A DNA stretch of 64,000 nucleotides from Auricularia sp. M13. Taxonomy: Eukaryota > Basidiomycota > Agaricomycetes > Auriculariales > Auriculariaceae. The DNA lies in contig CM073197.1 of NCBI GenBank assembly GCA_037042915.1, forward strand, positions 3,968,001 to 4,032,000, in the 5' to 3' direction. Position numbers and translations under genes: made by a program. The number at the start of each line of letters is the position of its first letter. The stretch's first letter is position 1. The notes under the pieces are model-generated. The model made no database searches. It was not told the origin of the DNA and saw nothing but the letters and a program-made list of their open reading frames with translations. This document shows, piece after piece, positions 1,066 through 48,204 of the stretch.

Positions 1066-1068
1066 GTT

Positions 1069-1482
1069 CTAAGGCTCTTTGTCGCGCTTGGGAATAACAG
1101 CGAGAGAAGTTACTGAGATCAGCCTAACCCCATATTCAATGTCGAACGCGTTTCCTTTCACTCGCACGTCGTCTCCACGTCCGGCAGACCGCAGCCGTTC
1201 CGCGTCTGTGCCCCGAACAATGAGGATAGGACTCTTTTCGTCTGTGAAAATGGTTAGGACGGACAACTAAGGTACGAATGTCAGCTTACAGAGGCGGAAA
1301 GTTGTAACGAAGATGGCTACGGCATCGGACTCGCGCGTAGGGCAGTCTATTGGTGACCAGTGCAGGATGCATTTGGCCGGCAGCTCAAACTCCGTAATAA
1401 TGCTCCCATCGCTGTTGCAGTCCTCGGGAGGCGGGAGCGACGGATCGTCGAGGTCTTCGAGCACGAGCCGGATGGGTACCAT
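1069..1482 (-). CDS. Small OB-fold-like protein
   Basis: Two open segments (1482-1267 and 1266-1069, minus strand) read as one small protein of about 125 residues if a short intron ending at 1267 (GT at about 1308) is removed; that donor is weak, so the join is tentative. The C-terminal half has the alternating hydrophobic pattern of an OB fold: a strand around LTIFTDEKSPILIVRG, then GDDVRVKGNAF, then VRLISVTSLAV. This resembles small single-strand-binding OB proteins in general layout only; no family was identified. It is transcribed away from the gene at 1964, and the spacer contains TGAGA-type motifs near 1570-1610 and 1750-1780. Confidence 0.45.
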
Positions 1483-1559
1483 ATGTAGCTGAACTGTGTG
1501 ACTGGATGTGAAAGTATTTTATAGACATCGCACCTGGGAACTCGGGGATGGCGGTATGC

Positions 1560-1920
1560 CTACCCCGCAGATCAGTCTGAGATCTCTCGCTGGCAAATCT
1601 CAGGCGATGAACTAGATATGATGGGTGAGTGAGAGAGGAAACGGTGACATCGTGAGCAACGTTGGTATGGTGAGACGATGTCAGTTGTGTCTTGCGCGAC
1701 GAACTGTGAGGACTCACCTTGCGTTCCTCGCAGCCAATGTCGTCATTGTCTCATACTAAATCAGTCTGAGATGAGAGAGAGAGTTCGCGCGCCCAACTCG
1801 GTGATCCTTCCTCCAGCGTTCGCAGGTGTGAGACTGCGAACTTGCACTCCAGCGCTCGTAGTGAGACTGCGGACTTGCTACGATCAGCTTCAGAGAGGGT
1901 CCGGCGGCCTATAAAAGGCG
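1560..1920 (+). promoter_or_regulatory. Promoter region with TGAGA motifs and TATA box
   Basis: CAGTCTGAGAT-type motifs occur near 1571 and 1760. A canonical TATAAAAGG lies at 1911-1919, about 50 bases before the ATG at 1964. The combination of TGAGAC-like dyad and TATA 30-60 bases before the start recurs at the other genes of this family. Confidence 0.6.
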
Positions 1921-1963
1921 CGCTTTTCCTCCCACTGTTGCACAGGCGTGGGTGAGAGCAGCG

Positions 1964-3016
1964 ATGACCGCTCTCCTCATCATAGGCTATTTGGCATTGT
2001 CAAATGGCCGGCGCGTTGCCTCTGAGAACCCAACCACCAAAAAAACAACTAACCATGTTTACTACGACACGATGATCCAAACCAGCGGCGTCGACATCAG
2101 TGCTGAGATCCGCTTTTGGGCGCCGGCGACGGATCCGTTGTTTCCCGACGGAACCGTCGTCGATGTGCTGGGCAAGGTCTACGCGCCACCCAATGCGGCA
2201 ATGCAAATCGATGCCGTTCAAGTTGTACCATTTCCCGGAGATCCTAACTCTGACACTTATGAAGACCAAATTCCTGATCGCCCGTTTCCCACGTTGATTG
2301 TTCTTGGCCATAGTAGTGGCACGCCCGAGACAATGGAAGATGGCTCTATTGGTTACTTTGTTCAAACCGCAGAGTATGTCCGTGATCAGTCCCGTACCTC
2401 ACGCGTATAGTAAGTCTATCATGATCTTATTTTTCTCGTGTTCTAAGATGCGCGTCAGTTGCCGTTTCGACGGCGCCAAACCTCGCTGGAAGAAGACACC
2501 GCGCCCACCGTCGGGCACGGCTGTTTTCATCCTCGGGCTGGCGCACGGCTTGCATCTTGCGGGCGGAAGCTTGATGGTGGACGTTGACCAGCTGCACCTC
2601 AACGTCGGTGGCATGTCCGCCACCTCGTCTGCGGCGCGCGCTGAAGCTGGTGGCCCGGCTGCCAAGCGTCGTCGCTTCCCAACCAAGACAGCACCTACAG
2701 ACGAGCCCTCCAGGTAAGTGATGCATAGGATGTTTTATCTAGGTCGACTTTACTCACTACATGCAGTAGCTCTTCGCGCGCTGTTAACCCATTCGCGAGC
2801 GGTATCGAGTTGACGGGTTCCGAGCCATTCGAGACCGCTGAGGATGCAGAAGAAGTGCCCGGCAGGTTCGCTGGCTCCACAAAGTCTTGAGCCATTCCGC
2901 TGATGCTGTGTAGTTCGCGTGCGCAGGTGCCTGGCACCGCGAAGACTAAGAGGGCCATCGGCACAAAGCGCAAGGCTGCTGCTCGTCGTTTCGAGCACGA
3001 TGAGAATGAGGAGTGA
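1964..3016 (+). CDS. OB-fold-like family protein (member A)
   Basis: ATG 1964 is the first after the TATA box. Proposed exons are 1964-2409, 2459-2713, 2767-2865 and 2914-3016; all introns are GT..AG and the joined frame stays open. Module 1 has the family signature LFPDGTVVDVLGKV followed by an alternating hydrophobic strand (MQIDAVQVV). Module 2 begins right after an intron with YCRF and continues AVFILGLAHG, then LMVDVDQLHL, equivalent to the 'V-lsG-l-GW---L-VdVH-i' pattern of its paralogues. The C-terminal third is low complexity with KRRR and KRKAAARR basic clusters (possible nuclear signal) and an acidic end. Function unknown; the fold assignment is inference. Confidence 0.65.
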
Positions 3017-3179
3017 GCGTATTATGGGATTGTTTCTCCTTTTCCTTCCTCTACGCCGAAAATGAACACTGAAAATGTAAAAAAATGCCTCTCTTGGTGA
3101 TGTCGCACTTGGTAGTTTAGTTTCGTGTCGGCTTCCCATCCTCAATGAAAGGAGCTTGCCGTGTAACCCGTGTCTCATC

Positions 3180-3300
3180 AGAGGCCATAATCTGAGACTC
3201 TGTGTCTCAGAGGTGTCTCGGCCGTGAGACAGTGACGTTCATGTCTCATGAGCGACGTTTAGAGCTAGAGTTTCAGCTCTTATATAGCGGCGGGTATTTA
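3180..3300 (+). promoter_or_regulatory. TGAGAC cluster and TATA box
   Basis: At least five TGAGAC/GTCTCA motifs occur at 3170-3250, followed by TTATATAGCGG near 3279 and ATTTAAGG near 3296. They precede the short gene starting at 3355. Confidence 0.6.
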
Positions 3301-3354
3301 AGGACGCCAGGCAGCACTCGCGACATCCCCCAAGACGTATTTATTGCGATTTAA

Positions 3355-3648
3355 ATGAACGCCCTGGAGGTAAAGACCCTTTTCAGTCAGAAGGGAAGTG
3401 TTATATGTGAACGAGAGCGCGGAATGCTGGTGTTCCGCATGAGAATTGACAACGTATGTTGGCGAAACTTAGTCCAGGACTACTCAGCGATTTCAACCAA
3501 GCTGACTTTATTGCAGGAAACGGTGGCGCTCATTAAGTTTGCAACGACGGTTGATCCCTCAGTGATCAGCTCAATGATCTCGGCGGCAGCGGTCGATAGG
3601 GTGCCGTGTTTCTGCATAATACCAGGTTCAATCTATAGGGCAGACTAA
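3355..3648 (+). CDS. Small uncharacterised protein
   Basis: A 97-codon frame starts at the first ATG after the TATA box. An internal stretch (3454-3516, GTATGT..TTGCAG, 63 bases) looks like an intron and is a multiple of three, so both spliced and unspliced forms stay open; the spliced product would be about 76 residues. No motif is recognisable, though LVFRMRID at the N-terminal side is a plausible beta strand. It may be a truncated relative of its OB-like neighbours. Promoter context is the main reason to accept it. Confidence 0.4.
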   Translation: MNALEVKTLFSQKGSVICERERGMLVFRMRIDNVCWRNLVQDYSAISTKLTLLQETVALIKFATTVDPSVISSMISAAAVDRVPCFCIIPGSIYRAD

Positions 3649-4195
3649 TGGCTGCGGCCGTATTAATGTATTATATATGTTGATTACATGTTGGCCGGGC
3701 TGTTCGATGTCTAATGTAATTTTTGTTCGGCAGCATCAGGGATAAAACCCGTATACTGGCTGAGAGCAAGCATATTTAGAAAGTAACAGACTTCAAACTA
3801 CACACTGAGACGCAATATTGTTTCATTCTTTGAATCAGACTGTGAGACACTAAGTTGAGACCTTCCTGCGTCATGCGCCAGCCTCTGGATGATGGGAACT
3901 GTTTCGCAATTGCAACTCCGCATTCGTGTCTCGCTCCTTGCCATTATAATGTTTGCGCGTCCGGAGCCTCGGAGCCCCTTCAGTATGCACCATGCCGATC
4001 CACACCCCCGGTGCGTCGTGCCCACTGCACGCGCGCGACGTCTGACTCTGGTACAGACTGCCCGTGCGCGTTATCCTGTGTGCGCATCAAGGCTCAGCGG
4101 CATGCGACTCTGGGCTCCTCTGACCAGTATCCGCGATGCGCTTTGCACGTACGTCCACCGCGGATTGTACACGGCTTGCTCTGACACATTCATAG

Positions 4196-4519
4196 TGCTA
4201 CTACGTCGCTCGGGCAGCCGAGTTCTTTTGCGGTCTTCCCAGCGTCGACTGGGCGCGCATCCATGACGACGGCTACGCGAGCGCCTGGGTTCAGCGTTGC
4301 TTGACTCAAGTTCCCCATCCCAGCATTATCCTGCGCCGCATTCGCTGTTCGCAAGTTGGTCTGGACGGGCTAGAGTTCGACGTTCAGCTTGAGCTCTGCG
4401 AGTCGGCTCGCTCGGAGCGCACCGCACGCTTCAGGCGTAACTTCTTCGAGACTTGGATCACGACGCTGTCATCCTTTCTGGACGCTGCCGAAGCAGAGGT
4501 TTACTATTCCATGTACTGA
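4196..4519 (+). CDS. Exon of a helical protein related to the gene at 47450
   Basis: An open segment begins after a good acceptor (CATTCATAG, ending at 4195) and ends with TGA at 4519. The product resembles the second exon of the gene at 47450-48204 in layout: 'GLPSVDW' versus 'DLPRIKL', 'YASAWVQRCL' versus 'YIREWVESAV', then a helical segment with an acidic/basic run before a final hydrophobic helix. Upstream exons were not resolved; TGAGAC motifs near 3840-3860 and a weak ATTATAATG near 3942 may mark the promoter. Function unknown. The relationship is by eye and moderate. Confidence 0.4.
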   Translation, partial: CYYVARAAEFFCGLPSVDWARIHDDGYASAWVQRCLTQVPHPSIILRRIRCSQVGLDGLEFDVQLELCESARSERTARFRRNFFETWITTLSSFLDAAEAEVYYSMY

Positions 4520-4904
4520 CTGTTCGTTTACTTAGTATTTTGGGTCTTAACCGTTATACATTTTTCGACCGTCATGTTCCACGCCGAGTCATTCGCACCA
4601 TTGGAGTGGGTCCGTATTGGTCGCTTTCAGTCGCAGAATGCATTTTGAGTGAGAGCATACGCACTTGCTGCTCGACTCGTGCGCTCATGTCGCGCTTTCA
4701 GTGTCAAGCCCCTCGTACCCCGCGGCGGAAAGGCGTTGGCCAAGCGCGTCGATGAGCAGTTTACGAAGGGCGCGGCCCTGGAAGGCGGTGAGTCCAACGA
4801 TGAGCAGCTTGGCCGGGTCGGCCAGCGTGACCGTAAGCTTGGGATTGCGCACACGGCGAGCGAGTGGCTCGCGTAGTATGACACAGCGCAGCGTCGACCG
4901 TTGC

Positions 4905-5125
4905 CGCTGGTCTCAGCATGAGACTGTCTCTGTACGCCTTACAACATGGGAATGTTCTTTCACAGTGAGACTGTCTTTGTTTGGGCAGTCTCAGACGCAC
5001 GCACGTGTGTTTCGCGTCGGTGTTTCGTGCACAGAAGGATTCGCGCTGCGTGCTCGCATCCAGTTTCGGACCAAGTACCAGCTGCGTTTCACAAGTAAGT
5101 CTCACCGGCTGAATAGCTATAAAAG
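4905..5125 (+). promoter_or_regulatory. TGAGAC dyads and TATA box of the gene at 5167
   Basis: TCTCAGCATGAGACTGTCTC at about 4913, GTGAGACTGTC at about 4966 and CAGTCTCAG at about 4986 precede CTATAAAAGCG near 5118. The ATG is at 5167, so the TATA-to-ATG distance is about 50 bases. Confidence 0.65.
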
Positions 5126-5166
5126 CGTGATATCTGACCGCTGGAGGTCGTTGCAGCTCCTACGAC

Positions 5167-6060
5167 ATGTCTGGCATCGAAAGCAGCGCATTCTACACAC
5201 TGTTCAATCCTTGCACCGTCGCGGCGACAGACACTGAGCCCAAATTCCACACGTACTTGGCCGTCACAAAAGTCGAGCGTGAGTTTTCCACTGCAGTGAT
5301 GGGTTGTGCATGTATCTCAACGAATTACAGGCGGCAACTTTGCGGTCTCAATCGCGCATCCGGTGGACAAACATCACGACACGCCACTGCTCTCGCAGGG
5401 TACCATCGCCTATGTTATGGGCTCCTTGGTCGTGGTCGATAGGGCCATTTTCATCACCGCCAGTGCCATTGTGGATGTGTTCCTTGCAGCCAGCCCAACG
5501 CTCCGCGCGGAATACCCCAAGCTTTTCCGTCCCTATCTATCCTTTCACGGCGTGGTCTCTGCCAAGATCATTGATGTCAACAAACCCGGCGTCAAGGTCT
5601 TTGACGTGACCGTCGATTGCAAGGACCGCTGGCCGAAGATCCCGGTCGTACTTCGGTGAGCAGTGTACGCGTTACCTCGCTGCTGCTTATCATCCCTCAG
5701 GTGCTTCTTCGACCGTGACGAAAAACGATTCCGCAGCCTGCTTGCGTTCGACGTCAACACGGCTCTTGAGCTCTCTGGGGTTCTGATGGGTTGGATCGAT
5801 GGGAAGCTCTGCATCGACGTGCATCAGGTCGACAGCGACAACGAGGGGGATCTTCCCGACGATGCCCTCGCTTCCTACCCAAGTCCCTACGAGAGCCGCG
5901 ACACTAGCGGAGGATTTGCAATCTTCAACGATCCGTCGACTTTGCCGCAGCAGCCCGGTCTGCCACAGTACGTACTGTAAGCTAAGTGATTGTAATGCCC
6001 ATCTCCTGATCGCCGCACAGGCTTAGTCGCTGCCCTCCTGGAGTGTCCGCAATGGTTTGA
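5167..6060 (+). CDS. OB-fold-like family protein (member B)
   Basis: Proposed exons are 5167-5278, 5331-5655, 5701-5967 and 6021-6060. If the last intron is not used the frame stops at 5980. Exon 1 ends in the conserved 'H-Y----' strand (FHTYLAVTKV). Exon 2 opens with NFAVSIAHPV and carries the signature LLSQGTIAYVMGSL, a second strand (IFITASAIV), then YLSFHGVVSA and VFDVTVD. It ends at the conserved R|C intron position. Exon 3 has module 2: CFFDRDEKRF, ALELSGVLMGW and LCIDVHQVD. This is the clearest family member, with every conserved intron present. The C-terminal tail is polar and probably disordered. Role unknown; single-strand nucleic acid binding is a fold-based guess. Confidence 0.7.
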
Positions 6061-6129
6061 AGCTGGCGCTGATGGTTTACAATAGTTAGTCTTTTTCTCC
6101 TTACTGTGATTGCACTTCAATACACGTTA

Positions 6130-6318
6130 TTTGCCTGAGACATGCTGCGGTATAATCTGCGTTTGAGACCCTTTCCTGAAGCGGCAGCTGTGTCTGAGAC
6201 GGTTTCTCGAAGTCAATTCGCAAGTGAGACTCGGATCTGCGCGCATTTCGCTTGCTCTGGGCTGTTTCGCACACACAAACTGAAACATGGGTTTACTGTC
6301 CTAGCCTGCCTATAAAGG
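6130..6318 (+). promoter_or_regulatory. TGAGAC cluster and TATA box of the gene at 6332
   Basis: TGAGAC occurs at about 6136, 6163, 6191 and 6223, and CTATAAAGG near 6310. The ATG follows at 6332, closer to the TATA than in paralogues. Confidence 0.55.
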
Positions 6319-6331
6319 TCCATTGGTCACT

Positions 6332-6978
6332 ATGCGCAAAATGGTCATGGTCCTCATCGTTCGAGGGACCTTCTTACTGATCCGGAGATATGGATCAAGT
6401 CGCATAGCGTCATCCCGCACGGTTGAGGAGGTGTATGAGACGCTACTAGAAGGCGAACGAGCTCTCCCACTGGATGCTATGCTGCATCTTACACGACCAG
6501 TGAACGAGCAACTCGGAGAGTTCACCTTCAGTGAGGGGACATACGTAGATATCCATGGCTCTATCTTGCTGCCTCGCACGGGGAAAGTGACTATCGAAGC
6601 CAGCCGCGTTGAACTTACGCAACGCTGTTCGAGCGACCGGTTCTCGCCCTCAGATCCAATTATATTCGCACTCGGTACAATTTGCGGTCCAGTTCAACCT
6701 TGGATGGGCAGTAAAAATTGTATTCACGGAGTGTCGGTTGCTGTAGGAGGCAATGATGCTAGGGTATTGTATGCCAGGACCCTCATCTCCCACATGTGAC
6801 TAACACTATCATCAGCTATACTCTCAGTTATAAGCCTTCGTCCTGGGTCAGAGACGGAGTGATGGTGTTGATTGGCGGTAGATTCTGTGGATGGTATTAC
6901 AATGAGGCATGGCCAGTCATCTCCGAAAGATACATGGCCATTGGCGTCGGTTCGCACGTGCCCACACTAAATTTGTAA
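6332..6978 (+). CDS. OB-fold-like family protein (member C), possibly degenerate
   Basis: From ATG 6332 the first exon keeps the module-1 pattern (FTFSEGTYVDIHGSILL, then VTIEASRVEL and GVSVAVGG). A second open piece, from about 6816 to the stop at 6978, carries module 2 (WVRDGVMVLIGGRFCGWYY). I could not find a GT..AG pair joining them in phase: the natural donor after 6763 and the acceptors near 6815 disagree. The gene may therefore use a non-obvious splice or be decaying. The N-terminus is hydrophobic/basic and lacks the usual first exon, so the true start may lie elsewhere. Confidence 0.5.
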
Positions 6979-7059
6979 ACAATTCAATGAACTGGTTCAT
7001 CTGTAATAAATCTTTAGTCTACGCTGTGTTCCTCTTCACGTCTGACTGTTAGGCCGGGA

Positions 7060-7290
7060 AGTGCTCGCCGCTTGCCCGAGTAAATGCGGAACAGCATGAT
7101 GAGCCCGATTCGGCGCAGCCTCGAAAGGCGGACGACACAGCGAGCTCGTTGAAGTCCGCACGGAGACCATCAGGCTGCGCTCAGAGTTGCTTGAGTCGGA
7201 CGCGAGCTCCTTCACCGCCGCCAAGGACTGCGTCCAGACCCTCTGCGAGTTCGCGAGCGACAGGAACACGGCTACAACGGCTAGTCTGAC
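7060..7290 (+). other. Coding-like remnant with heptad-like helix
   Basis: The frame reading RHSELVEVRTETIRLRSELL and continuing to about 7270 looks like an amphipathic helix, but it has no clear start, promoter or splice context and sits between members C and D. It could be a last exon or a gene remnant. Downstream, 7300-7560 holds repeated GCGCGACAGGCGCG-type phrases and TGAGAC motifs that probably belong to the promoter of the gene at 7684. Confidence 0.25.
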
Positions 7291-7479
7291 AGCATGGTCG
7301 CGATGCGTGAGATGGGCGCGACACAGGCGCGCTGGGGATACGTGAGACCGGCGCGAGACAGGCGCGTTGGGGATGTATCAGGACTGCTTCCTCTCAGGCA
7401 TACCGTGCTCGCTGTCTCACAATGTAATGTAGTGATTTGGGAGCTAATGGTATGGTAACGAAGTATTTGCTACACTGTG

Positions 7480-7660
7480 AGATGTCTCAGCTCAGCGGGA
7501 GAGACGCAGAACTGTTTCACATACAGCGTCAGTGCGAGACATCAGCGACTCAGGTGAGCGCATGTAAGACATCGAGAATTCCTGCGGCCTGTCTCGCGTT
7601 CGACTGAGAGCAGCACGTATGTCTGCAACTGACTGAGATTATGGCATAGAAAAGGCCCTC
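7480..7660 (+). promoter_or_regulatory. TGAGA/GTCTCA cluster of the gene at 7684
   Basis: GTGAGATGTCTCAG near 7480, a GCGAGAC near 7532 and CTGTCTCGCG near 7588 are followed by a weak TATA-like GCATAGAAAAGG near 7644. The ATG is at 7684. Confidence 0.45.
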
Positions 7661-7683
7661 CACGAGCTGCTTGCCTCTCTGAG

Positions 7684-8723
7684 ATGGCGTCCGTCAGTTT
7701 CGAGTCCTTTGTCGTACTTCTCACCCCCGGCTTTCTCCCGCCTAAGGGCTTCAACCAGCCATGGATGCACACCTATACGTCGGTGATTGGCATTAAGGGT
7801 GAGATAAAGATCGGCCATGCTCACCTCACATTTTGATTTGCGTCGAAGGCTCGAGTATTACAGCTCATATCACAATGCCTGTTCGCCAGCATAGCATTCC
7901 CGTTTTGCTTTCGCACGGCACTATCGCACGTGTGGTAGGATACTTGACGTTGAAAGATGCGGCTCTGGTCATCGAGGCGTCTTCCATCCACGCTTCGCTG
8001 CCTCCAAAGCTGGTCCATACTCCCGAATTAGCGCCGCTGTTTCATCCCGTAGTTATTTTCGAGGCACTCGTACTCACCGACGAGCTCGCGACTGGTGAAA
8101 AGCAGTCACTGATCGGTGTTGCGGTCGATTGCACGTACGATCGCGCTCAGGGCATGACGATCATGAGGTCAGTACCATTGTCACAGCCAAAATAATCCGT
8201 GCAGTACTGACAGTGTGATTAGGTGCTCAATCGATAGAGCGCGGTGTGAACATCTTCGAAACATCGAGCTGCTGCACTCCGGTGATCGCATCGTGCTTTC
8301 CGGTATTCTGCAGGGCTGGTATATGGGAAAACTGGAGGTAGTTGTACACGACATTTCGACGGATGATAGGGCCGTGTGCGCGGCACCGAGCACGGATCCG
8401 TGCCATTCCGTGGATACCCTCGGGTCACACACTATTCGGCGTTGGTGAGTGAACCACAACTCAACTGAACCTGGCTCAGCTTTTGTTAGGCTAGCGAAGA
8501 TGGTGCGAAAGAAGGCATCCACGTTGCAGGACACCGAGAGGTTCGTTGCGGTATCTTTAGCTCAGCGGCGTACCTATGATTCCTTATTTGCAGTGAAGTC
8601 AACGCAGCGAAACCGGGCGTGGGAAACATGGTGACGGCGCGTCGCGCGGTTGCAGGCCGAGGTTGTCGCCTGAGACGTCGCGTGCCATCGACGAGTAACC
8701 CGAGTCTGCTGAGATATCCGTGA
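7684..8723 (+). CDS. OB-fold-like family protein (member D)
   Basis: Exons 7684-7798, 7849-8167, 8223-8444, 8490-about 8540 and about 8595-8723 join in frame. Exon 1 ends in MHTYTSVIGIK. Exon 2 carries ITAHITMPV, VLLSHGTIARVVGYL, a strand LVIEASSI, then VVIFEALVL and LIGVAVD. Exon 3 starts with CSIDRAR and has RIVLSGILQGW and LEVVVHDIS. The RRW codon is split by an intron exactly as in members F and I, followed by LAKMVRKK, the counterpart of their 'FA--VRRGL' helix. The last exon is arginine-rich. The Helitron Rep gene starts only 178 bases downstream on the same strand. Confidence 0.7.
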
Positions 8724-8759
8724 TCAGACATGTCGCACCTATTCCGGTAGCTTGATGTA

Positions 8760-8860
8760 CATACGAGACTGTCTCGCATATGCAGCTGTTTTCAGGCTGT
8801 CTCAGCTGGGCGGAGAGGCATTATGTCAGATACCCTGTGAAATTCTATAAGAAGAGCGAG
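8760..8860 (+). promoter_or_regulatory. TGAGAC-type dyads and TATA-like box upstream of the Helitron gene
   Basis: ACGAGACTGTCTCGC at about 8762, GGCTGTCTCAGC at about 8796 and TTCTATAAGAAG near 8843 precede the Helitron ATG at 8901. This is the same arrangement as at the OB-like genes, which is why the helicase and those genes may be co-regulated. Confidence 0.6.
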
Positions 8861-8900
8861 CTCGAACCTGTCAGAGAGCCCACCAGCCCATCTAAACGCC

Positions 8901-13104: not shown

Positions 13105-13129
13105 CAGATATGTTAGACACTTGTATTTT

Positions 13130-34989: not shown

Positions 34990-34994
34990 TTGCG

Positions 34995-35914: not shown

Positions 35915-35916
35915 TA

Positions 35917-38753: not shown

Positions 38754-38764
38754 GTTGACGGGCT

Positions 38765-39055: not shown

Positions 39056-39093
39056 GGAGCAGCAAACCAGAAAGTAACTCAAGGCCATAACCC

Positions 39094-39101
39094 TTATTGC
39101 G
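39094..39101. repeat. Target-site duplication TTATTGCG (right)
   Basis: It matches 13097-13104 and is followed immediately by the missing C-terminal coding sequence of the Helitron helicase. Confidence 0.8.
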
Positions 39102-39248
39102 ATGGATCTACGGCGGCCTGTGTTCTCACACGGTCAACTTTACACTGCGGTTTCGCGAGTTAGGCGACGTGAGCATGCCGTCGTGAGGTTGCCGTTTGGA
39201 CAAAGACTTGCGGAGAACATCACGTACATTGAGATTTTGTTGCAGTAG
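39102..39248 (+). CDS. Helitron helicase, 3' portion
   Basis: This piece reads MDLRRPVFSHGQLYTAVSRV and continues to a TAG at 39246-39248. FSHGQLY-A-SRV is the standard C-terminal motif of Helitron/PIF1 helicases and is missing from the 5' portion. If 13105-39101 is removed, the last exon runs without a break from TLDLIA into MDLRRP. The next OB-like gene starts 185 bases downstream. Confidence 0.9.
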   Translation: MDLRRPVFSHGQLYTAVSRVRRREHAVVRLPFGQRLAENITYIEILLQ

Positions 39249-39289
39249 TCTTTTCTGATCAAGAATATACAGAATCTCACTTTCATGTG

Positions 39290-39395
39290 CAGTCTCAGTT
39301 GGGTACAAATGTGAGACAGGGGTCTAAAACCGTCGGAGAACTGAACGTAGCTGTGAGACAGTGTGAAACTGTCGGCTGCAGCCATATATAACCCA
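39290..39395 (+). promoter_or_regulatory. TGAGAC-type motifs and TATA box of the gene at 39433
   Basis: CAGTCTCAGTTG at about 39291, GTGAGACAGG at about 39311 and GTGAGACAGTGTGAAAC at about 39352 are followed by CATATATAACCC at about 39383. Confidence 0.6.
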
Positions 39396-39432
39396 TTACA
39401 AGCTCGTTGTGAAGCGAGTGGCTAGCTCGAAA

Positions 39433-39991
39433 ATGGGTATCACTGCCCTTGGCATCTTTCGCGTCACTACTGCGCATCTCTCTGCGCGGAAAGTCATATA
39501 CAACTCATCCGCAGCGTACGATCCGCAGTCTGTCCAGTACGAATTACATATGCGCGCGCCCCACCCGGCAGAGGTCTACGCTCCCGACACCTTACTCATA
39601 GTTTTCGGCGGCGTTGCACTCGACACAGAGAACCAAAGGATCATGATCCACTCTGAAGTCGTACTACCGTGGAATGGCCCCACGCACATGGCCTTTGTAT
39701 GGTTCTCTGCGATTGGGCGCGTGGTTCGCTGCGGAGGTATAGAGGAATGGACATCCACCTTTCCTCTCGTTGCGGCGTCCCGTACACTTGGCTACTCTTC
39801 GTTCGTGTAAGTCGTTCCTCCTCTCAAATCTCAATGCTGAATTCATCTGCAGATGCCGTGCACAGGCAGCGTCGCGGTTTGAAGGACTTACTGTACACGC
39901 CAACGAGCGTCTGCGGGTGGCGGGGAAGCCTTCTTACTGGAATGGGACTGTGCTGGTGGTCAACTTCTGTGCACTAAAGAAATTATATTGA
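39433..39991 (+). CDS. OB-fold-like family protein (member E)
   Basis: Exons 39433-39806 and 39853-39991 join in frame, with the intron at the same place before the module-2 'CR' as in paralogues. Module 1 reads YAPDTLLIVFGGVAL, then RIMIHSEVVLPW and FVWFSAIGRVV. Module 2 reads CRAQAASRFEGL, ERLRVAGKPSYWNGTVLVV. It lacks the C-terminal tail of the larger members and ends soon after module 2. It lies 185 bases after the Helitron helicase stop on the same strand. Confidence 0.65.
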
Positions 39992-40142
39992 AGATAAAAA
40001 TGTATTGCAGTTTTGCATGATAAAAATGACGTCGAGAGAGAAAGAGAGGTGAGAGAGAGAGCCTCGACTAGATGTCACATAAGCTTAGCGCCACCGGGGT
40101 CGATATAAGCCGTGGTTCGAGGGAGAAGCTCATTCGCCCCCG

Positions 40143-41170
40143 ATGTCTGAGCCTGACACAATCCCTCTCTTCCTCGACGCGTTCGTCCTTCTCGAGTTCC
40201 CCGGTCGCTGCGGTCCCTTTGAGGCTGGCGGAGCGGTCACGGACACGTATAGAGGTGTTGTGGAGCACGGGCGTGAGCATCCTTTCATTTATCTCCGAGC
40301 GCAAGTAACGTCCCTCAGGTTCTTCCCTGCGAATTTCGCTTTCGGTCAAAGTTTTGGACCTATCCACGGCCGTACTCTTCCCCCACGGCACCGTTGCACA
40401 TGTCGTTGGCCCTATGAAGACTATCGGCACATCGCTCTTCGTCACGACTACTTCGGACTTAATCACGCTCGGGCCGACGGAGGCAATCCGACCGGAACTG
40501 AGCGGGATTTTTGATCCCATCGTTCTCTTCGCTGGAGTCGTCTCGTCACCGTATGCGTCTTACGACGCAGCATCTGGCCTTATCTTCGTCGACCTGAACG
40601 TCAAGGACAGCGAGAACACGCTTGGCGGGCCCACTGTCATCAGGTCAGATCTGTTACTTCTATTGCTCCTCCACCCTAGCTGATCTGTCTGTAGATGCAA
40701 GCTCAATAAGAACTACGTCCACTTGCGCACACTTCCGCAGCTGAAATGGAACGACAAGATTGTAATCTGCGGCGTACTCGAAGGCTCTGACAGCCATGAG
40801 CTCGTGGTCGACGTTCACGACGTTGGACTCGGTGACGAAGACTACGTGTGCGCTACCGCCGGACTCGCGCGCGTGTCGACGCCCATCAAGTGTGTGGCCA
40901 AGTCTGCTTGCCGTTGGTACGTAGCATGCGTGTGTTTCTTGGGTCTTGCTCATGCATGCCAGGTTCGCGTCAGCCATTCGTCGCGGTCTGGAAGGCGTCG
41001 AGGAATGTACGAATAACAGGCAAGGTTCTTTTCATTTTGCCACGTAGATAATCTAACCAGCTCACAGGACCGCGCCTCAGCGCCGCACTCGAGCTCATGC
41101 AAGCCTTCCTCGCGCGCCGCCGCAAGTTCTTCACGCGCAGGATCAGAACGCCGGCGCTAGCGGCTCGGTG
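40143..41170 (+). CDS. OB-fold-like family protein (member F)
   Basis: Exons 40143-40272, 40319-40643, 40695-40916, 40963-about 41024 and a last basic exon ending about 41160-41170. Module 1 has LRISLSVKVLD, VLFPHGTVAHVVGPM and LFVTTTSDLI, then PIVLFAGVVSS and LIFVDLNVKD. Module 2 has CKLNKNYVHLR, KIVICGVLEG, LVVDVHDVGL. It shares the C-terminal segment DYVCATAGLA..KSACRW, a split Trp codon, then FASAIRRGLEGV with member I, its closest relative here. The final exon (RRRKFFTRR in one frame) is strongly basic, but its splice phase is ambiguous. Confidence 0.65.
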
Positions 41171-41389
41171 ACTACTGGGTAAGTTGCTTGACATGCGTAC
41201 CTGGCTGGTTTCTTACTGGCCCCAGCGATAATGTAGTGTCGTGACTTCTGAAGATATTGCGTCTCCCGTTGATCCCAATCTGTAATTTGACTCGCCCTCG
41301 AACTATGAATCTTCTTTACAATCGTGCGCCCGCACAGATCCGTTCATTACTCAGCGTGCTACAAAGTTTTCTCGTGCTGCCGATGAAGC

Positions 41390-41530
41390 TGTGCGCGCTG
41401 CTGCATACACTGCAGGACCTAGCGGAGCGCGGCAGCCGGATCTGCGACACGGCTGCACACGCTGACCTGGAAGTGCACGGAAGCGCAATATGCGACACGA
41501 GCTGCATACGCTGCAGGACGTGGCCGACTG
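41390..41530. repeat. Dispersed GC-rich repeat, copy 2
   Basis: Resembles 240-420 (GCGCTGCTGCATACACTGCA, ATCTGCGACACGG) and contains its own partial duplication (CTGCATACGCTGCAGGACGT at about 41501). It lies in the 41230-41750 intergenic stretch, where no gene was seen. Confidence 0.45.
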
Positions 41531-41679
41531 CGCGGGCGGTCGATACAATACGTTGCCGCTCCTTGGCGCACCGTCAGACCACGGACGCGTAAGGATCGCT
41601 GCAAGACAATGCTGCTCGTAGCAATTCCCCCCGCCGGTGGCGCAGCGTGAGACCACGCACGCTGGTTTCGTCCATGTAA

Positions 41680-41950
41680 GACTCGTCTCACTGGTGTCAT
41701 TCACGCTGTCTTACCCCTGGCTCCGCTCGGCCTATTCACAGATGTCTCAAAAGTAATTGAATATGGGATTCTGCGTCTTAGACTGCGACAGCATGCCTTC
41801 GGCGTCACCTTGGCAGGAATATTCGTACGGTACAATAGAGACATCGCGCAACGCTGCAATTACGCGACTTCGATCTCATCGTCAGCGCACAGTGCCCACA
41901 TTGGCAGAGTCGATATCAGTTGATGTCTCTTCATTTCCCGACTATAAATA
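41680..41950 (+). promoter_or_regulatory. GTCTCA motifs and TATA box of the gene at 42002
   Basis: AGACTCGTCTCACTG at about 41677, GATGTCTCAAAAG at about 41740, TGATGTCTC at about 41921 and ACTATAAATATG at about 41940. The ATG is 62 bases after the TATA. Confidence 0.5.
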
Positions 41951-42001
41951 TGAAGCATTCACAGGCAAGCTTGGCTCTGTCCCCGCCTCGAGATCTACGA
42001 C

Positions 42002-42834
42002 ATGCCGTCCTTTACGTGCTCGATGATGGCTTTCCTCTACGAGCCCGCGCGTGCAAGTGCCGATGCGCCCGGTCTCAAGGGCTACAACGTCTACCACAGC
42101 AAATTTCAGCTTCAAGGTTTGTAACGAGCAATCCACAGTTTCATCATTAACTTAGTGTAGGTTCTGAGATTGCGGTCTCCATCGCTCACATGACTCTCAA
42201 GACCAAGTACCCGCATGGCACGCTCGCATACGTCGTGGGCAGCGCGAATTTCTACGAAGGAAGTCTCTTAATTGTGGCTACCATCGTCATTCCTGCTGCC
42301 CTCGCACCGCGACCCGACTCGACATGCCGAGGGCTCTTCTATCTCCCCCGGTTCACCTATTCCGGTTTCGTGTCCTCAGCCTATCAAACCATTGACATAA
42401 ACCCGGAATGCTTTGGCTTCGACGTCACAGTTGTCCGTCGCAACGTTTGGCCTGCAGTACCGGTTGTCATCTCGTGCGTGCACTACGGAGTGTTTGTAGC
42501 ATACTCACCTTTCCGCAGTTCGTGGATTAACCGCGACGCAAACCGTCTGACTCTGCATGGCGACGCATCTCCGGGCACACCAGTCACAATCACAGGAATC
42601 ATTTGCGGTTGGACTGTCGACAACACGCCAATGGTGGATGTGCATACCATCTCCTTCACCAGATCCGGCCGCCCGTCACCTTTCCTCGCGACCGACGCCC
42701 GCAACCCGTTCGAGCGTGCAGACTTCCGCGATGGCTATGCGCTGTACGACGAGGTTCTTACTCATCCGGGCAAACCTCAAGCGAATATTCTATCTCTCAA
42801 CGCACCCGCGACTCTCATTCTGCGCCCCATGTAG
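42002..42834 (+). CDS. OB-fold-like family protein (member G), C-terminus cut by a MITE
   Basis: Exons 42002-42116, 42161-42473 and 42519-42834, all in phase. Exon 1 ends YNVYHSKFQLQ; exon 2 has EIAVSIAHMTL, KYPHGTLAYVVGSANF and LLIVATIVIPA; exon 3 starts SWINRDANRL with VTITGIICGW and PMVDVHTISF. Module 2 lacks the usual Cys at the splice. The present stop (TAG 42832-42834) is the first three bases of the inserted hAT MITE. Before insertion the frame ran on into 43393 onward (..RPM to RAPPSDPRIQPGTP..), so the C-terminus changed with the insertion. Confidence 0.7.
42824..42831. repeat. hAT MITE target-site duplication GCCCCATG (left)
   Basis: Repeated exactly at 43385-43392, directly after the right end of the MITE. 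Eight bases is the hAT standard. Confidence 0.9.
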
Positions 42835-43384
42835 TGTTTTGAAGTCCCGGCCTCAAGCCGGAAGCCGGCCGGAGCCGAGCCCGTCTGAGCCGAGCCGGAC
42901 GTCCGGCCTGAGGCTCGGGCTTGGAGTTTGGCAGGCCCGAGCCGCCGGCTTTGCTGACGGCCTGGTATTACTGGTAATATATTTGGTCCTGATGTGCTGT
43001 TGGCAACCTAACTACAGTCCATAATACAGTAGATCACTAGAAGCCTCATTCTTGGCACCCGGAGTGTCTGGATGCACCGTCGGTTGTTGGCCCGGACGCA
43101 TTTGCCTCCGAGCCGCGGCGGCGGTCGTCCGAGTTTGAGCGTTCCGGAGCCCAAACAACCTGCCTAGAAGACCACAGAAACAGTGAGCAGAGGTCTCATG
43201 ATAGTATGAGCTCACATATACCCTTATATGGCCGCCATTATTGCATGTTGATGCATACACCAAAGCCGCGGCTTGAGCCCCGGCTTCGGGCTCGGCTCGG
43301 GCTTTGGACGGCTCCGGCTCCGGCCTGACCCCTGGTAAGCCCGAGCCAGCCCGAGCCGAGCCGAGCCGGGCTTTTAAAACACTA
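42832..43384. mobile_element. Non-autonomous hAT element (MITE, 553 bases)
   Basis: It starts TAGTGTTTTGAAGTCCCGGC and ends GGGCTTTTAAAACACTA, flanked by the 8-base duplication GCCCCATG. Both subterminal regions are extremely rich in GCCGAGCC/GGCTCGGG repeats; the centre (about 42960-43260) is of ordinary composition and carries no transposase. Ends and subterminal repeats match the full hAT at 52960-57913, the likely source of transposase. Confidence 0.9.
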
Positions 43385-43392
43385 GCCCCATG

Positions 43393-43510
43393 CGCGCCCC
43401 GCCTTCCGATCCCCGTATTCAACCTGGGACTCCTTTCCCGTACGTGGAGAGTATTTTCAACTATGTATGATACACTGACAGATCACAGTTCCCCGACTGA
43501 GGGTGAATAT
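43393..43510 (+). other. Displaced 3' end of member G
   Basis: RAPPSDPRIQPGTPF in frame with the pre-insertion gene is followed by a strong donor (GTACGT at 43440) and an acceptor near 43486. In the phase I read, a stop follows soon after. An open segment to about 43675 in another phase is Ser/Asp-rich and could be an alternative tail. Confidence 0.4.
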
Positions 43511-43989
43511 TCAGTGTCGAAGGATGATACCGTTCAAGAGTCTGCTCCTTCATCGCCCGTGTCGTCCGAAGGGATTTGTCGCTCTCGCGCCATCCAGCGC
43601 AGTCGCGCGAACCGTCGCGCAATGGCAGCGCCTTATGACACAGCAACCCGCGAGGTCTCTCCTCTGACGGTTTGAAGAGCATGGTAAGTTCGGGAATTGA
43701 TATTTCCAATAACGCGCGGATAACAGCCCGGACTTCGTAGAACCAGAAGTGCTGGGGGGATTGAACGAGTCGCAATAATAGTAGTCTTGATGTACTCTAA
43801 TGTTACTCAAATGAGGGGTAATCTGAATGCATCCTAAAGTTCATGTGTTCTTTGCTCTTTCGCGGCGTGCACGTCCAAATTCAACTTCCGACCAAATTGG
43901 CTCCGTCCCATCCATCCTCTTCCGCGTCGCGCTCGGCGTCGCGCCGTCGCTTCGCCGCGACAGACGCTGCTTCTACTGCTGCACCCTCA

Positions 43990-44120
43990 TGTCTCGAGCT
44001 TGAGACCCGGACTGCGCGAGAGACGTGTTTCAGCTGTGTCTCAAGAGCGGCGGAGCCCTTCATTCGAGACACCCATGCAAGACATCATCTAATAAACTCG
44101 GCTGCTGCTGTATAAAGACC
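43990..44120 (+). promoter_or_regulatory. TGAGAC cluster and TATA box of the gene at 44158
   Basis: ATGTCTCGAGCTTGAGACC at about 43989, GCGAGAGACG at about 44019, GTGTCTCAAG at about 44036 and GAGACACCC at about 44065; CTGTATAAAGACC at about 44108. The ATG is about 50 bases after the TATA. Confidence 0.6.
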
Positions 44121-44157
44121 CTGTGCGAGACAACGCCTCCACTCCACCTCGTGCGCC

Positions 44158-45803
44158 ATGTCTATCACCTGCCTGACGTTCTTCCTCGTCGTTGAGCCGT
44201 CTGCACCCAGCCAGTTGGCCCAGGGCGGCGATGCCTCGCAACTTCAGCATCACACCTGCACCGGCATCTTGCAAGGTGCGTCGTGCTCGCTGATGTGCTG
44301 CTCATGCTGACCGCTATGTCTCAGACTGCGGGCTGAACATCTCGGTCTACTACGAGCGTGCTGGTCCTCCATTTCCGCGCGGTACCGTTCTTCGCGTTGA
44401 AGGCGCATTCATCATGTTTGGAGGCAGCTCCATGATATTCGCCGAGAACGTCGAGGACCTGCACTGCGCGACTGCTATATGCGGGCAGCTCATCCCGTTC
44501 AGACCTCGGCTTTGGGTCGACGGCTTCCTTATTCACGCCGAATTGTCCATGGACATCGACGGGTCGCGCGCACTGGTTCTCGATATCCTCGTCGAGGGAC
44601 CAATCTCTGCCACCGTCCGGTACGCTCGCATCGTTTCTATACGAGCACAGCTCACGCGTGTATAGGTGCAAGTTCTTGCGCTCTCGTCACCTCATCGCCG
44701 CTCTTCCGGCGCTCTACAAGAAGCACAAGCTGTCCGTGATGGGCGACGTCTGCGGCTGGTCTAGCCAAGACGTCGTCGACATCGACAGATGCAGCATCAA
44801 CTACATTGTTTATCCCAAGTACACCGCCATTTGCGAGGTCCTCTATCAGCCTTTTCAAGTCGACGACGCGGCCAATGTTTCAACGCCGTTCAACGCCGCC
44901 ATCTCTGCTTCCAAGTTCATCGGTGCCGCAAGCGATATGTACAGGTGCGCAGAATCTCGCGTGTGTCATAATCTCTGCTCACATGTACCCACAGTTCACC
45001 AGGCGCAGAGTTCGTGCACGCTACTCAGGGCAAGAACATAGGCAAGGCCAACGACGTCGACAACGCGGTTACTGCGGCTTTTGGCCCAAGCAATCTCCAT
45101 TCAACGGTCTCGGGATGGTCTCCACCCGAAGCTATGGCACCCGCCTCGACGACTGCTGGGACGTATACCTCCAGGTTTGTTGGCGTTCAATACAGACTTT
45201 TGCTTTTACTTATGTTGGCCTCTGCAGGCTGGTATGTTCGGACCCATCCACCCATCCTCCTCGCAGTGACGCTGTCAAGGCCGCTGATCGTCCATCTGCC
45301 ACAATCGCTCCACGCGCGTTCGGCGGCAGCATGGGAGCGGTCCCCCAGAACCCTTCGGTCAACGTTTACGGGTGGCAGCCCGCCGCTGACTCGACAGTCT
45401 CTGGCGCGGCTACGGGCAATTCTCCTGTGGGCATGGGCGGCGTCAGGAGCGGCGGCGCAACCAATACCTCGTGCGTCTCTTTTTACCTTATCATATGATT
45501 GTTCACGCGCATCCATATAGGTCGCGCTTCGCAGAGCTGTCTGCTCAGTCCAGCAGGAAGGGGTGAGCAAATGTAAATTGCGTCAGAGCCGTCTCGCTGA
45601 ATCCAAGCTTTACAGTGTGTCGGGCGGCTCTGAAAGCTCGAACAATCCTTCCTTGAACGTTCATAGTCGGTCGCCAGAGAAAATCAAGAAGTCGACACTG
45701 GCCGGCAACTTCGAGCGTCCCGAGTAAGCTATATTTCTCTTCCTTTCGCATTCTTCGTTTAATGTCCCTCAGCGTCTTCAAAACGAAAAACATTAGTCTC
45801 TAA
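44158..45803 (+). CDS. OB-fold-like family protein (member H), long C-terminal tail
   Basis: Exons begin 44158-44275, 44325-44619 and 44666-44944, all in phase; later exons near 45000-45175, 45235-45470, 45520-45562 and 45616-45803 are less certain. Module 1: LNISVYYERAG, PPFPRGTVLRVEGAF, MIFAENVED, then LWVDGFLIHAEL and ALVLDILVE. Module 2: CKFLRSRHLIAAL, KLSVMGDVCGW, VVDIDRCSIN. The tail is long, Ser/Gly/Ala-rich and probably disordered, ending with KIKKST and a short basic stretch. It is the longest family member in the window. Confidence 0.6.
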
Positions 45804-45993
45804 GTAACAGTAGCTCTCACTTCCTTTGTAGTCCGTGAATGAATGCCAGTGGCTTATGCTCGCTTCTGCTCAGCGTGTGAAGGTGGTGGTGAACCCGAAC
45901 AGCCGGAGCTGTTCGTCATGCTCCTGGGAGACATTGGATAGGCTCGTGCCGTCAACACTACAAAAGTGACTCACTTGCAACCCACCATGGAAA

Positions 45994-46950
45994 ATGAATG
46001 CCTCTCCCGCGTCAGCGAGCGATTCCCCCGCAACATCGACTATCCACATCGACGCTATTCTCGTCCTTCTCTATCCAGGGACCATCCCGCCGAGAAGCGT
46101 CAACGACCACTTCTGCTTTACTTACAGCGCCGTCGTCACCTGCAGTACCGGTGTGCCACGTCGTACCCACTGTTTGCATTTGCTCACATACTGCAGGTCG
46201 CGTCCTTCATATTGACGTTGTTTTGGCCGCTGTGAATCCCCGCTCGACGCTTCTGCCTCACGAGACCTCCGCGCACGTGGTTGGGACAGCGAACATGATT
46301 GGGAATCGACTCACGGTTACGGCGTCGTCCATCTCCCCCGGACCATCCGCGGTGCTCAGTCCGGCGCTGGCAGACCTACTCCAGCCGCTCGTCCTTTTTG
46401 GAGGCGTCGTGACTGGCCGCAACCTTGCCGTCGCAAACGGCACGCAGTCCGGTCTTCAAGTCGTCGACGTCACGATACAGCGTACATTGGACTGGCCTCA
46501 CGCGCCTATCACAATCAGGTATGTTCTCCTTAATAGTATGATCAGCCGCGGCCTAATTATCCACGCAGGTGCAAGCTTGACCAGGCCAACGAGCATGTAC
46601 AGTCTCTCAATCACGTCGAGATGGACGCCGTGGTCATTATTTCGGGCGTGTTGTCTCCATGACATCGGTCTGGAACATGATGATGGCTTCGTCTGCACGA
46701 CTCCAGCTCTAGCTGGCACTCCTGGACCGTTCAAGTCGACGCTGAAATCCACTTGCCGCTGGTACGAGGCCTCTTTACTACAACCAAACTATCTGACGTT
46801 GCCGAGGTTCGCCAACACGGTTCGCCGCGGACTGCAAACCTTTGACAAGAAATCCCCGTGAGTACTGCTCGTGCTTTCATCGCCGTGGTTGCTAACGCTA
46901 TCATTAGCAGACGTGCTCGTGCCTCTGAGCCCAACGAGAATACCGCATAG
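45994..46950 (+). pseudogene. OB-fold-like family gene (member I), disrupted in module 2
   Basis: Exons 45994-46150, 46197-46518, 46569-46761, 46807-46858 and 46911-46950 have good splice sites and family positions, including the split Trp codon before FANTVRRGL. Module 1 is well kept (LLPHETSAHVVGTANM, RLTVTASSIS, LVLFGGVVTG, LQVVDVTIQ). Module 2 starts normally (CKLDQANEHV, VVIISGVLS) but then hits TGA at about 46660; the expected GW..L-VDVH segment is missing and the family frame resumes at DIGLEHDDGFVC. A short deletion with frame change explains this. ATG 45987 in another frame was rejected. A TATA box was not obvious. Confidence 0.6.
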
Positions 46951-46999
46951 CCAGCTCCTGTACATCTGTAGTCGCGCTCCCGTCTCAATCTATTGATGT

Positions 47000-47425
47000 C
47001 TAACCCGTCTCTACGTCTGACTTTTTGAGATTTTGTACATGGGTGCCCATTGGATGAGTCTAAGGCGGCATGAACGGCCTCTGGAATTGAGCGAAGTCTC
47101 GAATGCTCTCGTGCGGCTCTCATCACGTCTCACTTTGACAAAATCGCTGCTGGGCCGATGATCTGTGCTCCCGCGTCGGTTGTCTTGACGAGCTCAAACT
47201 GTCTGAGACGTGGTCCCATGCTGTCTCATTTCAACCTAAGATTGGCTAGGTGCCGCTGGATGCTTTTCCACAGTCTCTGAGACCTGAGTCGCGATCCTCA
47301 CACTGTTTCATTAATGTGTGAGACGTTTTGCGACATGAGACACTGAGCGGAACCAGTCGTTGCGTCTCAAGACATGGCCATTGAGAATAATATGGAACTT
47401 CTGGGACATGCGCGGTATATAAAGG
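47000..47425 (+). promoter_or_regulatory. Long TGAGAC/GTCTCA cluster and TATA box of the gene at 47450
   Basis: More than ten motifs occur between 47100 and 47370, including GTCTGAGACGTGG, CTGTCTCATTTC, GTCTCTGAGACC and ACATGAGACACTGAG. GGTATATAAAGGG lies at 47413-47425. This is the densest motif cluster after the one at 1-960. Confidence 0.65.
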
Positions 47426-47449
47426 GTGCAGACCAGGCCAGCTCTGTCC

Positions 47450-48204
47450 ATGCCAATGATGGAAGACCCTGAGTTGATCCAGAAGTACGAAGCTATTGAG
47501 CACAGCAAGTGCTGCACCATAATAGCTCTCAAAGACGTGCCTGTGTGCACCTGCGCTATTAAAATTGCGAACAGAGCGGCCCGCGAACGTCGCCAAGCCG
47601 CGAGAAGCACTCGTGCTGCTCGCACTTCAGTGACTCCGGCTGCTGCGAATGCCGGTCACCATGCACCTCCTCGAACCACTGTCCCCGCACGCCGTGAGGA
47701 AGGGACAATGAGCTCGTCCGGCGGGACACAGCGCCTTGCATGCGGGAATGGTCGCAATCTATCGTCATCTCGCCAATTCGATGGTGTGGCTATTGATCTG
47801 ATCCCGACCAAGGACCTTGAGGTAGGTAGTATATAGCAGATTTGTACCTAGCAAAAGTAACACATGGTCAGCGCTACTTCGCGTTCCGTACTCCACGATT
47901 GCTATCGGATCTTCCTCGTATCAAGCTTTCCGGTCTACAGAAAGGAGCATACATCCGAGAGTGGGTAGAAAGTGCGGTACGGCGCACCAAAAATGCAGAC
48001 TATGTGCGGCATCGCCTTCATCTTCTCGAGTCTCTCATCAACAACATCGCCGCGTTGTTGATGGTTGAGGTCGCATGCAGTGAATGCGCTGAGCGGAAGG
48101 GGAAGAAGTTAGAGGATGCTGTGGAGGCATGGCAGTCAAAGTACATTTTCTTCATTGACTTTGCTGTTTGGGTTTGTGACACTTTGTATGATCACGAGAA
48201 GTAG
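47450..48204 (+). CDS. Uncharacterised helical protein, relative of the segment at 4196
   Basis: Exons 47450-47821 and 47872-48204, joined in phase (DLE to RYFAFRTPRL). Exon 1 has a Cys-containing stretch (CCTIIALKDVPVCTC), an Arg-rich helix and a low-complexity Thr/Ala/Pro region. Exon 2 has DLPRIKLSGL, YIREWVESAVRRTK, a hydrophobic helix (SLINNIAALLMVEVA) and a final FIDFAVWVCDTLYD. Not an OB-like member, but it shares the same promoter type. Function unknown. Confidence 0.6.

What the first reader, a model, noticed from the sequence alone, without database searches (positions are those of the whole stretch)
1069..48204. Helitron Rep/helicase flanked on both sides by arrays of OB-fold-like genes with the same promoter design
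At least nine paralogues (A-I) plus a small OB-like gene at 1069 surround the Helitron gene, with about 180-base gaps to the nearest ones and the same TGAGAC dyads plus TATA. Some plant and animal Helitrons carry RPA-like OB-fold proteins. Inference: these genes may be accessory single-strand-binding proteins of one very large Helitron, a multi-paralogue arrangement I do not know from the literature.
Basis: inference. Interest (0 to 1): 0.9.

Follow-up and report, generated by a model that had tools for sequence, protein, structure and literature searches.

The report
Giant fungal Helitrons carrying OB-gene arrays
A mushroom-type fungus carries unusually large rolling-circle jumping genes (Helitrons) that move together with a whole set of related genes whose proteins probably have the fold used to bind single-stranded DNA, which suggests that the jumping gene brings its own DNA-handling kit.

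Summary
The window holds one Helitron almost entirely: it starts 13 bases before window base 1 (5'-TCCATTCG...) and ends at 48270 (...GGTCTTG-3'), set between A and T; a gapless 184-bp empty site lies elsewhere in the genome. It is 48,283 bp, of which 25,988 bp is a later insert that splits the Rep/helicase gene and makes the 3' array look detached. A 28.4-kb relative occurs in four copies, 99.4-99.6% identical, arrays included. Genome-wide, all 64 matches to member B fall inside such elements, at 14 of 43 Rep loci; 29 Rep loci have none. Orthologous array genes keep their order and are under purifying selection. Member A is modelled as an OB fold nearest to SSB/PriB/RPA, at moderate confidence; the core family is profile-related to A. 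ssDNA binding is inferred, not shown. A second paralogous family was also matched only inside these elements. The fungal Helitrons in the papers I saw reach 13.7-14 kb with one to four passengers. New variant of a known kind.

The parts
1..48270 (+). One Helitron, nearly whole: its 5' end lies 13 bases before window base 1 (C5:3967988), its 3' end at 48270; 48,283 bp with the later insert, 22,295 bp without
   Evidence: ends aligned with 14 other left and 18 right ends; empty site gapless over 184 bp; lengths
1..47 (+). 5'-terminal sequence shared with the 28.4-kb element (85% over 47 bp)
1069..1482 (-). small gene S0 (121 aa, two exons); no support as an OB member
   Evidence: model; Pfam none; no hit with the core profile
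1964..3016 (+). gene A, two-OB-type protein with basic tail (292 aa); lies near the 5' end of the elements
   Evidence: AF2 model of exon 1; homologues
4017..4520 (+). second-family gene (approximate limits)
   Evidence: X 2780-3085 vs window 4196-4501, E 4e-25; C5b vs window E 6e-29
5167..6060 (+). gene B, core family
6332..6978 (+). gene x6332, divergent family member; relative at the same place in the 28-kb element
   Evidence: vs A E 1.7e-4; E 4e-12
7684..8723 (+). gene C, core family; only member with a weak OB Pfam match (PF01336, E 0.008, under cut-off)
8901..13104 (+). Helitron Rep/helicase gene, five exons, up to the insert
   Evidence: PF14214 125.8 bits, PF05970 182.1 bits; model
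13105..39092 (.). later insert of 25,988 bp in the helicase gene, 9-bp target duplication CTTATTGCG (13096-13104 / 39093-39101), imperfect inverted ends; not part of the Helitron
39093..39248 (+). 3' end of the helicase frame beyond the insert (starts with the duplicated 9 bp)
   Evidence: uninterrupted in the other two elements read
39433..39991 (+). gene D (170 aa); relative in the 28-kb element; no support as an OB member
   Evidence: X 21589-21792, E 8e-7
40143..41172 (+). gene E, core family (last exon uncertain)
42002..42834 (+). gene F, core family; its tail is cut by a small insert at about 42835-43386
   Evidence: relative at the like place in X, E 1e-27
44158..45803 (+). gene G, core family (3' exons uncertain)
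45994..46950 (+). gene H, core family; its frame breaks off in the second domain at about 46663
47456..48204 (+). second-family gene I (231 aa, two exons)
48244..48270 (+). 3' terminal motif ACCGTAGCGAAGTGCAGGTTGGTCTTG, element end
   Evidence: not caught by the pattern scan
48271..48913 (.). right flank: repeat that also holds the C5b Helitron, and supplies that copy's unoccupied counterpart at about 48740

Best explanation
The window holds one member of a family of 22-28-kb Helitrons in a fungus. Each of the three elements read in full carries, on the strand of the Rep/helicase gene, an array of diverged paralogues with two OB-type domains (eight in the window, A, B, x6332, C, E-H, with D unproven; about nine in the 28-kb element X; six or seven in C5b) and one to four genes of a second family. 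SHOWN: precise ends, A|T insertion, presence of the whole unit at different sites in near-identical copies, matches to these genes only inside such elements in this genome, conserved order, purifying selection, an OB model for one member. INFERRED: after RepHel nicks one strand and unwinds, the 20-30 kb single strand is covered and handled by the element's own OB proteins. Since several paralogues (A, B, F) have counterparts at the same place in other elements, they more likely act as different parts or stages of one apparatus than as spare copies. In the window's element one promoter design would switch them on together with RepHel.
Against: No member tested has a Pfam match over cut-off, and neither the core nor the A profile matches PDB chains by sequence at E <= 0.001 (best 0.22, superoxide dismutase; none to E 10). 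Only two of five AF2 models of A exceed pLDDT 60 (67.0, 60.8, 41.4, 38.3, 35.1), Foldseek's best E is 7.2e-3, none <= 0.001, and the F model failed. No ssDNA-binding residue pattern was tested. The TGAGAC motif does not extend to the other elements. Only 3 of about 15 elements were read in full. Many weaker B matches (E up to 0.67) are counted among the 64. The window's own copy has a split helicase gene.
Confidence: 0.67

Rival explanations
1. The OB proteins are Helitron genes but not ssDNA-coating proteins: they act as scaffolds, RepHel partners, anti-silencing or regulatory factors.
For: OB folds serve many ends (recalled); core members are only about 20-33% identical to each other, A has a long basic tail, and two elements are enriched in different short words.
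Against: Nearest solved folds to A are mostly ssDNA-binding proteins; the carrier is a ssDNA-making transposon; RPA genes are known in plant Helitrons (PMC4683698).
Confidence: 0.25
2. Passenger genes captured from a host and carried along without a role in transposition.
For: Helitrons capture genes; Pleurotus HELPO1 elements carry one to four captured genes, some of unknown function, found only inside Helitrons (PMC4289320).
Against: Same order in elements whose synonymous sites are near saturation, with purifying selection; no B, C or second-family match outside elements; gene A recurs within 1.3 kb of 10 detected left ends.
Confidence: 0.12
3. A host gene cluster of OB paralogues into which Helitrons inserted by chance.
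For: In one window the arrays surround the helicase and the insert separates them widely.
Against: Element ends lie outside both arrays with an empty site; arrays recur at 14 Rep loci on 8 contigs; four near-identical copies including arrays stand at different sites.
Confidence: 0.01
4. A composite: a former plasmid- or virus-like replicon with a gene set for replication, which now uses Helitron-type Rep and ends.
For: Many co-oriented genes per element and paralogue families of unknown descent.
Against: Apart from the nested copia, no viral gene among the ORFs given to Pfam; not every ORF was given. Ends and target are Helitron-like; no viral structure match to A at E <= 0.001.
Confidence: 0.05

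Closest known systems
HELPO2 Helitrons of Pleurotus ostreatus (Castanera et al. 2014, PMC4289320; abstract and whole Results section)
   Same: 3' end CTTG, AT insertion, RepHel of about 1400 aa with Helitron_like_N and PIF1 domains, basidiomycete host
   Different: Intact HELPO2 copies are 6.4 kb and only contain RepHel; the sister family HELPO1 reaches 13.7 kb with one to four captured genes; no OB-gene array is described in the section read
Plant Helitrons with RPA-like genes (Mothra family and sister, PMC4683698; abstract and passages)
   Same: A Helitron encoding an OB-type single-strand-binding protein, beside RepHel in the sister family
   Different: There an RPA homologue recognisable by sequence; here many mutually diverged two-domain paralogues per element without a Pfam match over cut-off or a PDB sequence match
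FoHeli Helitrons of Fusarium oxysporum (PMC5148889; passages)
   Same: Fungal Helitrons with ends confirmed by empty sites; FoHeli1/2 insert next to AT
   Different: The authors found no RPA-like genes; the larger group spans about 9-11 kb; termini differ
Large maize Helitrons with captured fragments (as told in the review PMC6431247; passages)
   Same: Size (up to 39 kb) and several genes inside
   Different: Those hold captured host gene fragments, not a conserved paralogous set under selection

Membership tests
Helitron | Rep (Helitron_like_N) and PIF1-type helicase in one protein | tested here: met
   PF14214 E 3e-36 and PF05970 E 1.5e-53 in the window's gene model; the gene is split by an insert in this copy
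Helitron | Insertion between A and T without target duplication | tested here: met
   Empty sites for the window copy, C1 and C9 copies; 15 of 15 left and 18 of 18 right ends fit A|T. The C5b target fits only if its copy differed by two bases from the window's repeat (38, 48)
Helitron | 5' terminus TC | tested here: inconclusive
   TC in 5 of 15 left ends, among them the window's and C5b; TA in 10 of 15, five of them copies of X. T[C/G] is reported for Pleurotus
Helitron | 3' terminus CTRR, or CTTG as reported for HELPO2 | tested here: met
   CTTG in 17 of 18 right ends listed and in the window's own; CCTG in one. Strict CTRR is not met
Helitron | Subterminal hairpin before the 3' end | tested here: inconclusive
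   Five 3' ends folded as DNA: -1.3 to -3.2 kcal/mol, none clearly better than shuffles (z -0.63 to 0.40); instead a conserved 18-nt motif
RPA / SSB (as protein family) | Sequence match to an RPA, SSB or other OB profile over its cut-off | tested here: not met
   Pfam: only C against PF01336, E 0.005-0.008, under cut-off
OB fold | Five-stranded barrel matching solved OB structures | tested here: met
   First domain of member A only, at moderate confidence. Core members by profile relation to A; F model unusable; no other member modelled
ssDNA-binding protein (function) | Binds single-stranded DNA | not testable with these tools
   needs protein and gel shift

The most novel reading that the evidence does not exclude
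These Helitrons encode their own multi-subunit single-strand machinery: a heteromeric RPA- or CST-like complex built from orthologous, non-redundant OB paralogues plus second-family partners, made under a promoter code private to each element lineage, which lets a rolling-circle transposon move 20-30 kb at once.
Probability: 0.3. Interest if true: 0.88.

Novelty: new variant of a known kind. Interest (0 to 1): 0.74.

Why it matters
How Helitrons protect and process the long single strand they make is little known, and I know of no proven role for the RPA-like genes of plant Helitrons (recalled). Here is a lineage in which an OB-type module has grown to a conserved array, in near-identical recent copies with clean ends and empty sites, so the role of element-coded single-strand proteins and the upper size of rolling-circle transposition become testable. 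The private promoter words would also bear on how transposon genes are co-regulated.

Tried and rejected
Host-cluster reading: rejected. The pattern scan for right ends missed the window's own; it was found by reading and the flank comparison. A first reading of the target as ATA (three placements possible) was settled as A|T by aligning all ends. Public homologues: B alone none, core alignment none among the 8000 candidates scored, gene A ten, six of them named Auricularia subglabra; the search has limited sensitivity, so absence for the core says little. PDB by sequence: nothing for A to E 10, only superoxide dismutase rows at E 0.22 and worse for the core. F structure: failed. Viral structure library: best E 4.4e-3, phage polymerase and SSB among others. 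A common promoter word for all elements: not found; X is rich in TGACGT(CA), whose place relative to starts I did not test, and C5b's CCTCGCCC mostly sits in one tandem cluster at element bases 17807-17947. Hairpin: not supported. I first counted six second-family genes in C5b and three in X; a BLAST check split off four of them as a third set. Literature: eight completed searches of the held open-access library; from the listings and the passages I saw (PMC4289320, PMC4683698, PMC5148889, PMC6431247, PMC12730594) no fungal Helitron with an OB-gene array is known to me; subscription papers were not searched.
Full report
WHERE IT IS. The window is C5:3968001-4032000 of an unnamed 52.1-Mb, 14-contig genome. 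The host is probably an agaricomycete fungus near Auricularia: six of the ten public relatives of gene A are named Auricularia subglabra (order Auriculariales).

THE GENE. Pfam finds Helitron_like_N and PIF1 in a five-exon model at 8901-13116. The frame does not end there naturally: a 25,988-bp stretch, 13105-39092, is flanked by the 9-bp repeat CTTATTGCG, has imperfect inverted ends, and is followed at 39093-39248 by the rest of the helicase frame, which is uninterrupted in the two other elements read. The insert carries a KDZ-associated CxC4 domain, a copia element with two identical 271-bp LTRs and a DDE_3 gene inside an 84-bp inverted repeat. So the two arrays of the finding flank one helicase gene; the downstream one was pushed away later.

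THE ARRAY GENES. I modelled A, B, x6332 and C upstream and D, E, F, G and H downstream. B, C, E, F, G and H are linked by BLAST (best pair E 2e-24; each has a partner at 9e-7 or better; G-E is only 0.014). A matches x6332 at 1.7e-4; D is not among the 40 rows shown. A profile of the six core members finds three pieces of each of them in the window, weakly gene A, but neither D, x6332 nor the small gene at 1069. In the two other elements read in full it finds genes at about 418 (gene A), 1587, 3962, 13073, 15378 and 21147 in C5b and at about 784 (gene A), 3903, 5612, 11100, 13424, 17624, 19214, 20270 and 23028 in X (the 28.4-kb element), some of them weak (E up to 0.46), all on +. A further C5b gene at 5082 scores only E 0.83. 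The order A, second family, B, RepHel, F is kept in window, X and C5b; x6332 has its relative between B and RepHel in X.

THE ENDS. X copies on C7, C1 and C9 align to the C2 copy at 99.4-99.6% over 24.4 to 28.5 kb; the right ends stop together in all four and the left ends in three. The C7 copy's left end lies 48.9 kb before the aligned part instead of 4.0 kb, so about 45 kb has come between; that stretch was not examined. Window bases 1-47 match X bases 15-61. Patterns made from the ends gave 15 left and 18 right places with no match to the reversed control patterns. Aligned, every left end reads A|T[AC]...CGTAT[AT]G, and the right ends read CTTG|T in 17 of 18 and CCTG|T in one. The window's own right end was not in that scan; it lies at 48270, and the left flank plus right flank of the window's element match C5b DNA without a gap over 184 bp. 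Empty sites for the C1 copy (in a gypsy-like gene, named from its translation as recalled) and the C9 copy likewise show no duplication. A 1-kb pair of ends on C8 (L056) looks like a non-autonomous relative.

GENOME-WIDE LINKAGE. The Rep domain rings at 51 places, which I merged to 43 loci by hand. Of 64 matches to B at E <= 1 (all 54 first-look candidates scored), 59 lie within 20 kb of a Rep locus; at most 3.3% of the genome lies that near one. The other 5 are three in the window beyond the insert, C1:8379904 and C7:2059946 (E 0.67). Held against the detected ends, 49 of 64 lie between two ends, 13 between a gene A and a right end, 2 in an element with only a left end, none outside. 14 Rep loci on 8 contigs have such genes and 29 have none; most of the 29 have long open frames, but four are under 400 aa (C7:3731797, C9:868754, C2:4352077, C11:2607126). 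C as query gave 15 matches, 15 between two ends. Gene A rings at 34 stretches in about 15 places; 10 places lie within 1.3 kb of a detected left end, four more lie 8-11 kb before a Rep locus without a detected left end, and one, C2:3024127, lies 1.2 kb beyond a right end with no Rep locus listed.

OTHER GENES. A second family (window 4196-4501 and gene I; C5b 2984, 6062, 19784, 20617; X 2762) is linked by BLAST at E 1e-30 to 1e-4; the C5b member as query found 17 places, all inside elements, none of them in X. A third set (X 15765, 16572; C5b 6641, 18361) is linked within itself at E 1e-10 or better. Both look helical to the eye; no fold was predicted.

SELECTION. In A exon 1 (all 10 pairs of 5), B (3 pairs), F (1 pair) and a RepHel exon (3 pairs), synonymous differences are near saturation (pS 0.66-0.89) and nonsynonymous ones lower (pN 0.08-0.27, 0.39-0.40, 0.30, 0.13-0.15). 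The array genes are therefore old and kept; B and F change faster than the RepHel exon.

PROMOTERS. TGAGAC is enriched in the window's element (66 against 17.9), mostly before genes. X is instead rich in TGACGT (TGACGTCA 9 against 0.9), C5b in a word that is mostly one tandem cluster.

AGAINST THE LITERATURE. HELPO2 of Pleurotus has the same CTTG end and AT target but only RepHel; HELPO1 holds one to four captured genes and reaches 13.7 kb. A review gives 14 kb as the size reached in fungi. Plant Helitrons with an RPA homologue are the nearest idea; FoHelis have none. In eight completed searches of the held library I saw no OB-gene array in a Helitron, judging by listings and passages.

VERDICT. 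A real, large, recently mobile Helitron lineage with a conserved array of OB-type paralogues and further paralogous families. Membership in Helitrons is met on RepHel, A|T target and the CTTG end; the hairpin is unproven. The mechanism (element-coded single-strand handling) is the best reading, not a shown fact.

Noticed in passing
window 13105-39092: 26-kb composite insert with 9-bp target duplication: CxC4 (KDZ-associated) gene, three minus-strand ORFs without Pfam match, nested copia with 100% identical LTRs (24082-24352 / 29267-29537) and a DDE_3 element with 84-bp inverted repeats (32444-35916).
   Followed up: partly
window about 42835-43386 and 52956-52999: Small repeat with TAGTGTTTT...AAAACACTA ends and an 8-bp GCCCCATG repeat at its borders (hAT-like look, recalled); it cuts the tail of gene F; its end sequence recurs at 52956.
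   Followed up: partly
window 4017-4520 and 47456-48204; also C5b (L033-L036) and X (L010): Second paralogous family with a core of about 105 aa, one to four per element read; all 17 genome matches of one member lie inside these Helitrons; no Pfam match.
   Followed up: partly
X element bases about 15765-16883 (L011); C5b element bases 6641-6952 and 18349-18660 (L034, L035): Third small set of paralogues shared by X and C5b, function unknown.
   Followed up: partly
L056 (C8:1813500-1814650): About 1-kb pair of matching Helitron ends with no array gene matched in it: likely non-autonomous relative.
   Followed up: partly
28-kb element, bases about 26546-27503 (C2 copy, L012): ORFs with an AT-hook-like KKKRGRKPK stretch and cysteine pairs, no match seen in the window's element or C5b; no Pfam match.
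   Followed up: partly
window 48271-48913 and L033: One repeat family serves as target for two different Helitrons of this lineage (the window's and C5b), at different positions.
   Followed up: no
window 48891-50357: Gene with DUF6589 (PF20231), E 2.5e-42, outside the Helitron.
   Followed up: no
C2:3022872 and C2:3024127: A right end with gene A 1.2 kb beyond it and no Rep locus listed near: possibly two elements head to tail or a broken copy.
   Followed up: no
C7:2056035-2104928: About 45 kb of extra DNA inside the C7 copy of the 28-kb element.
   Followed up: no
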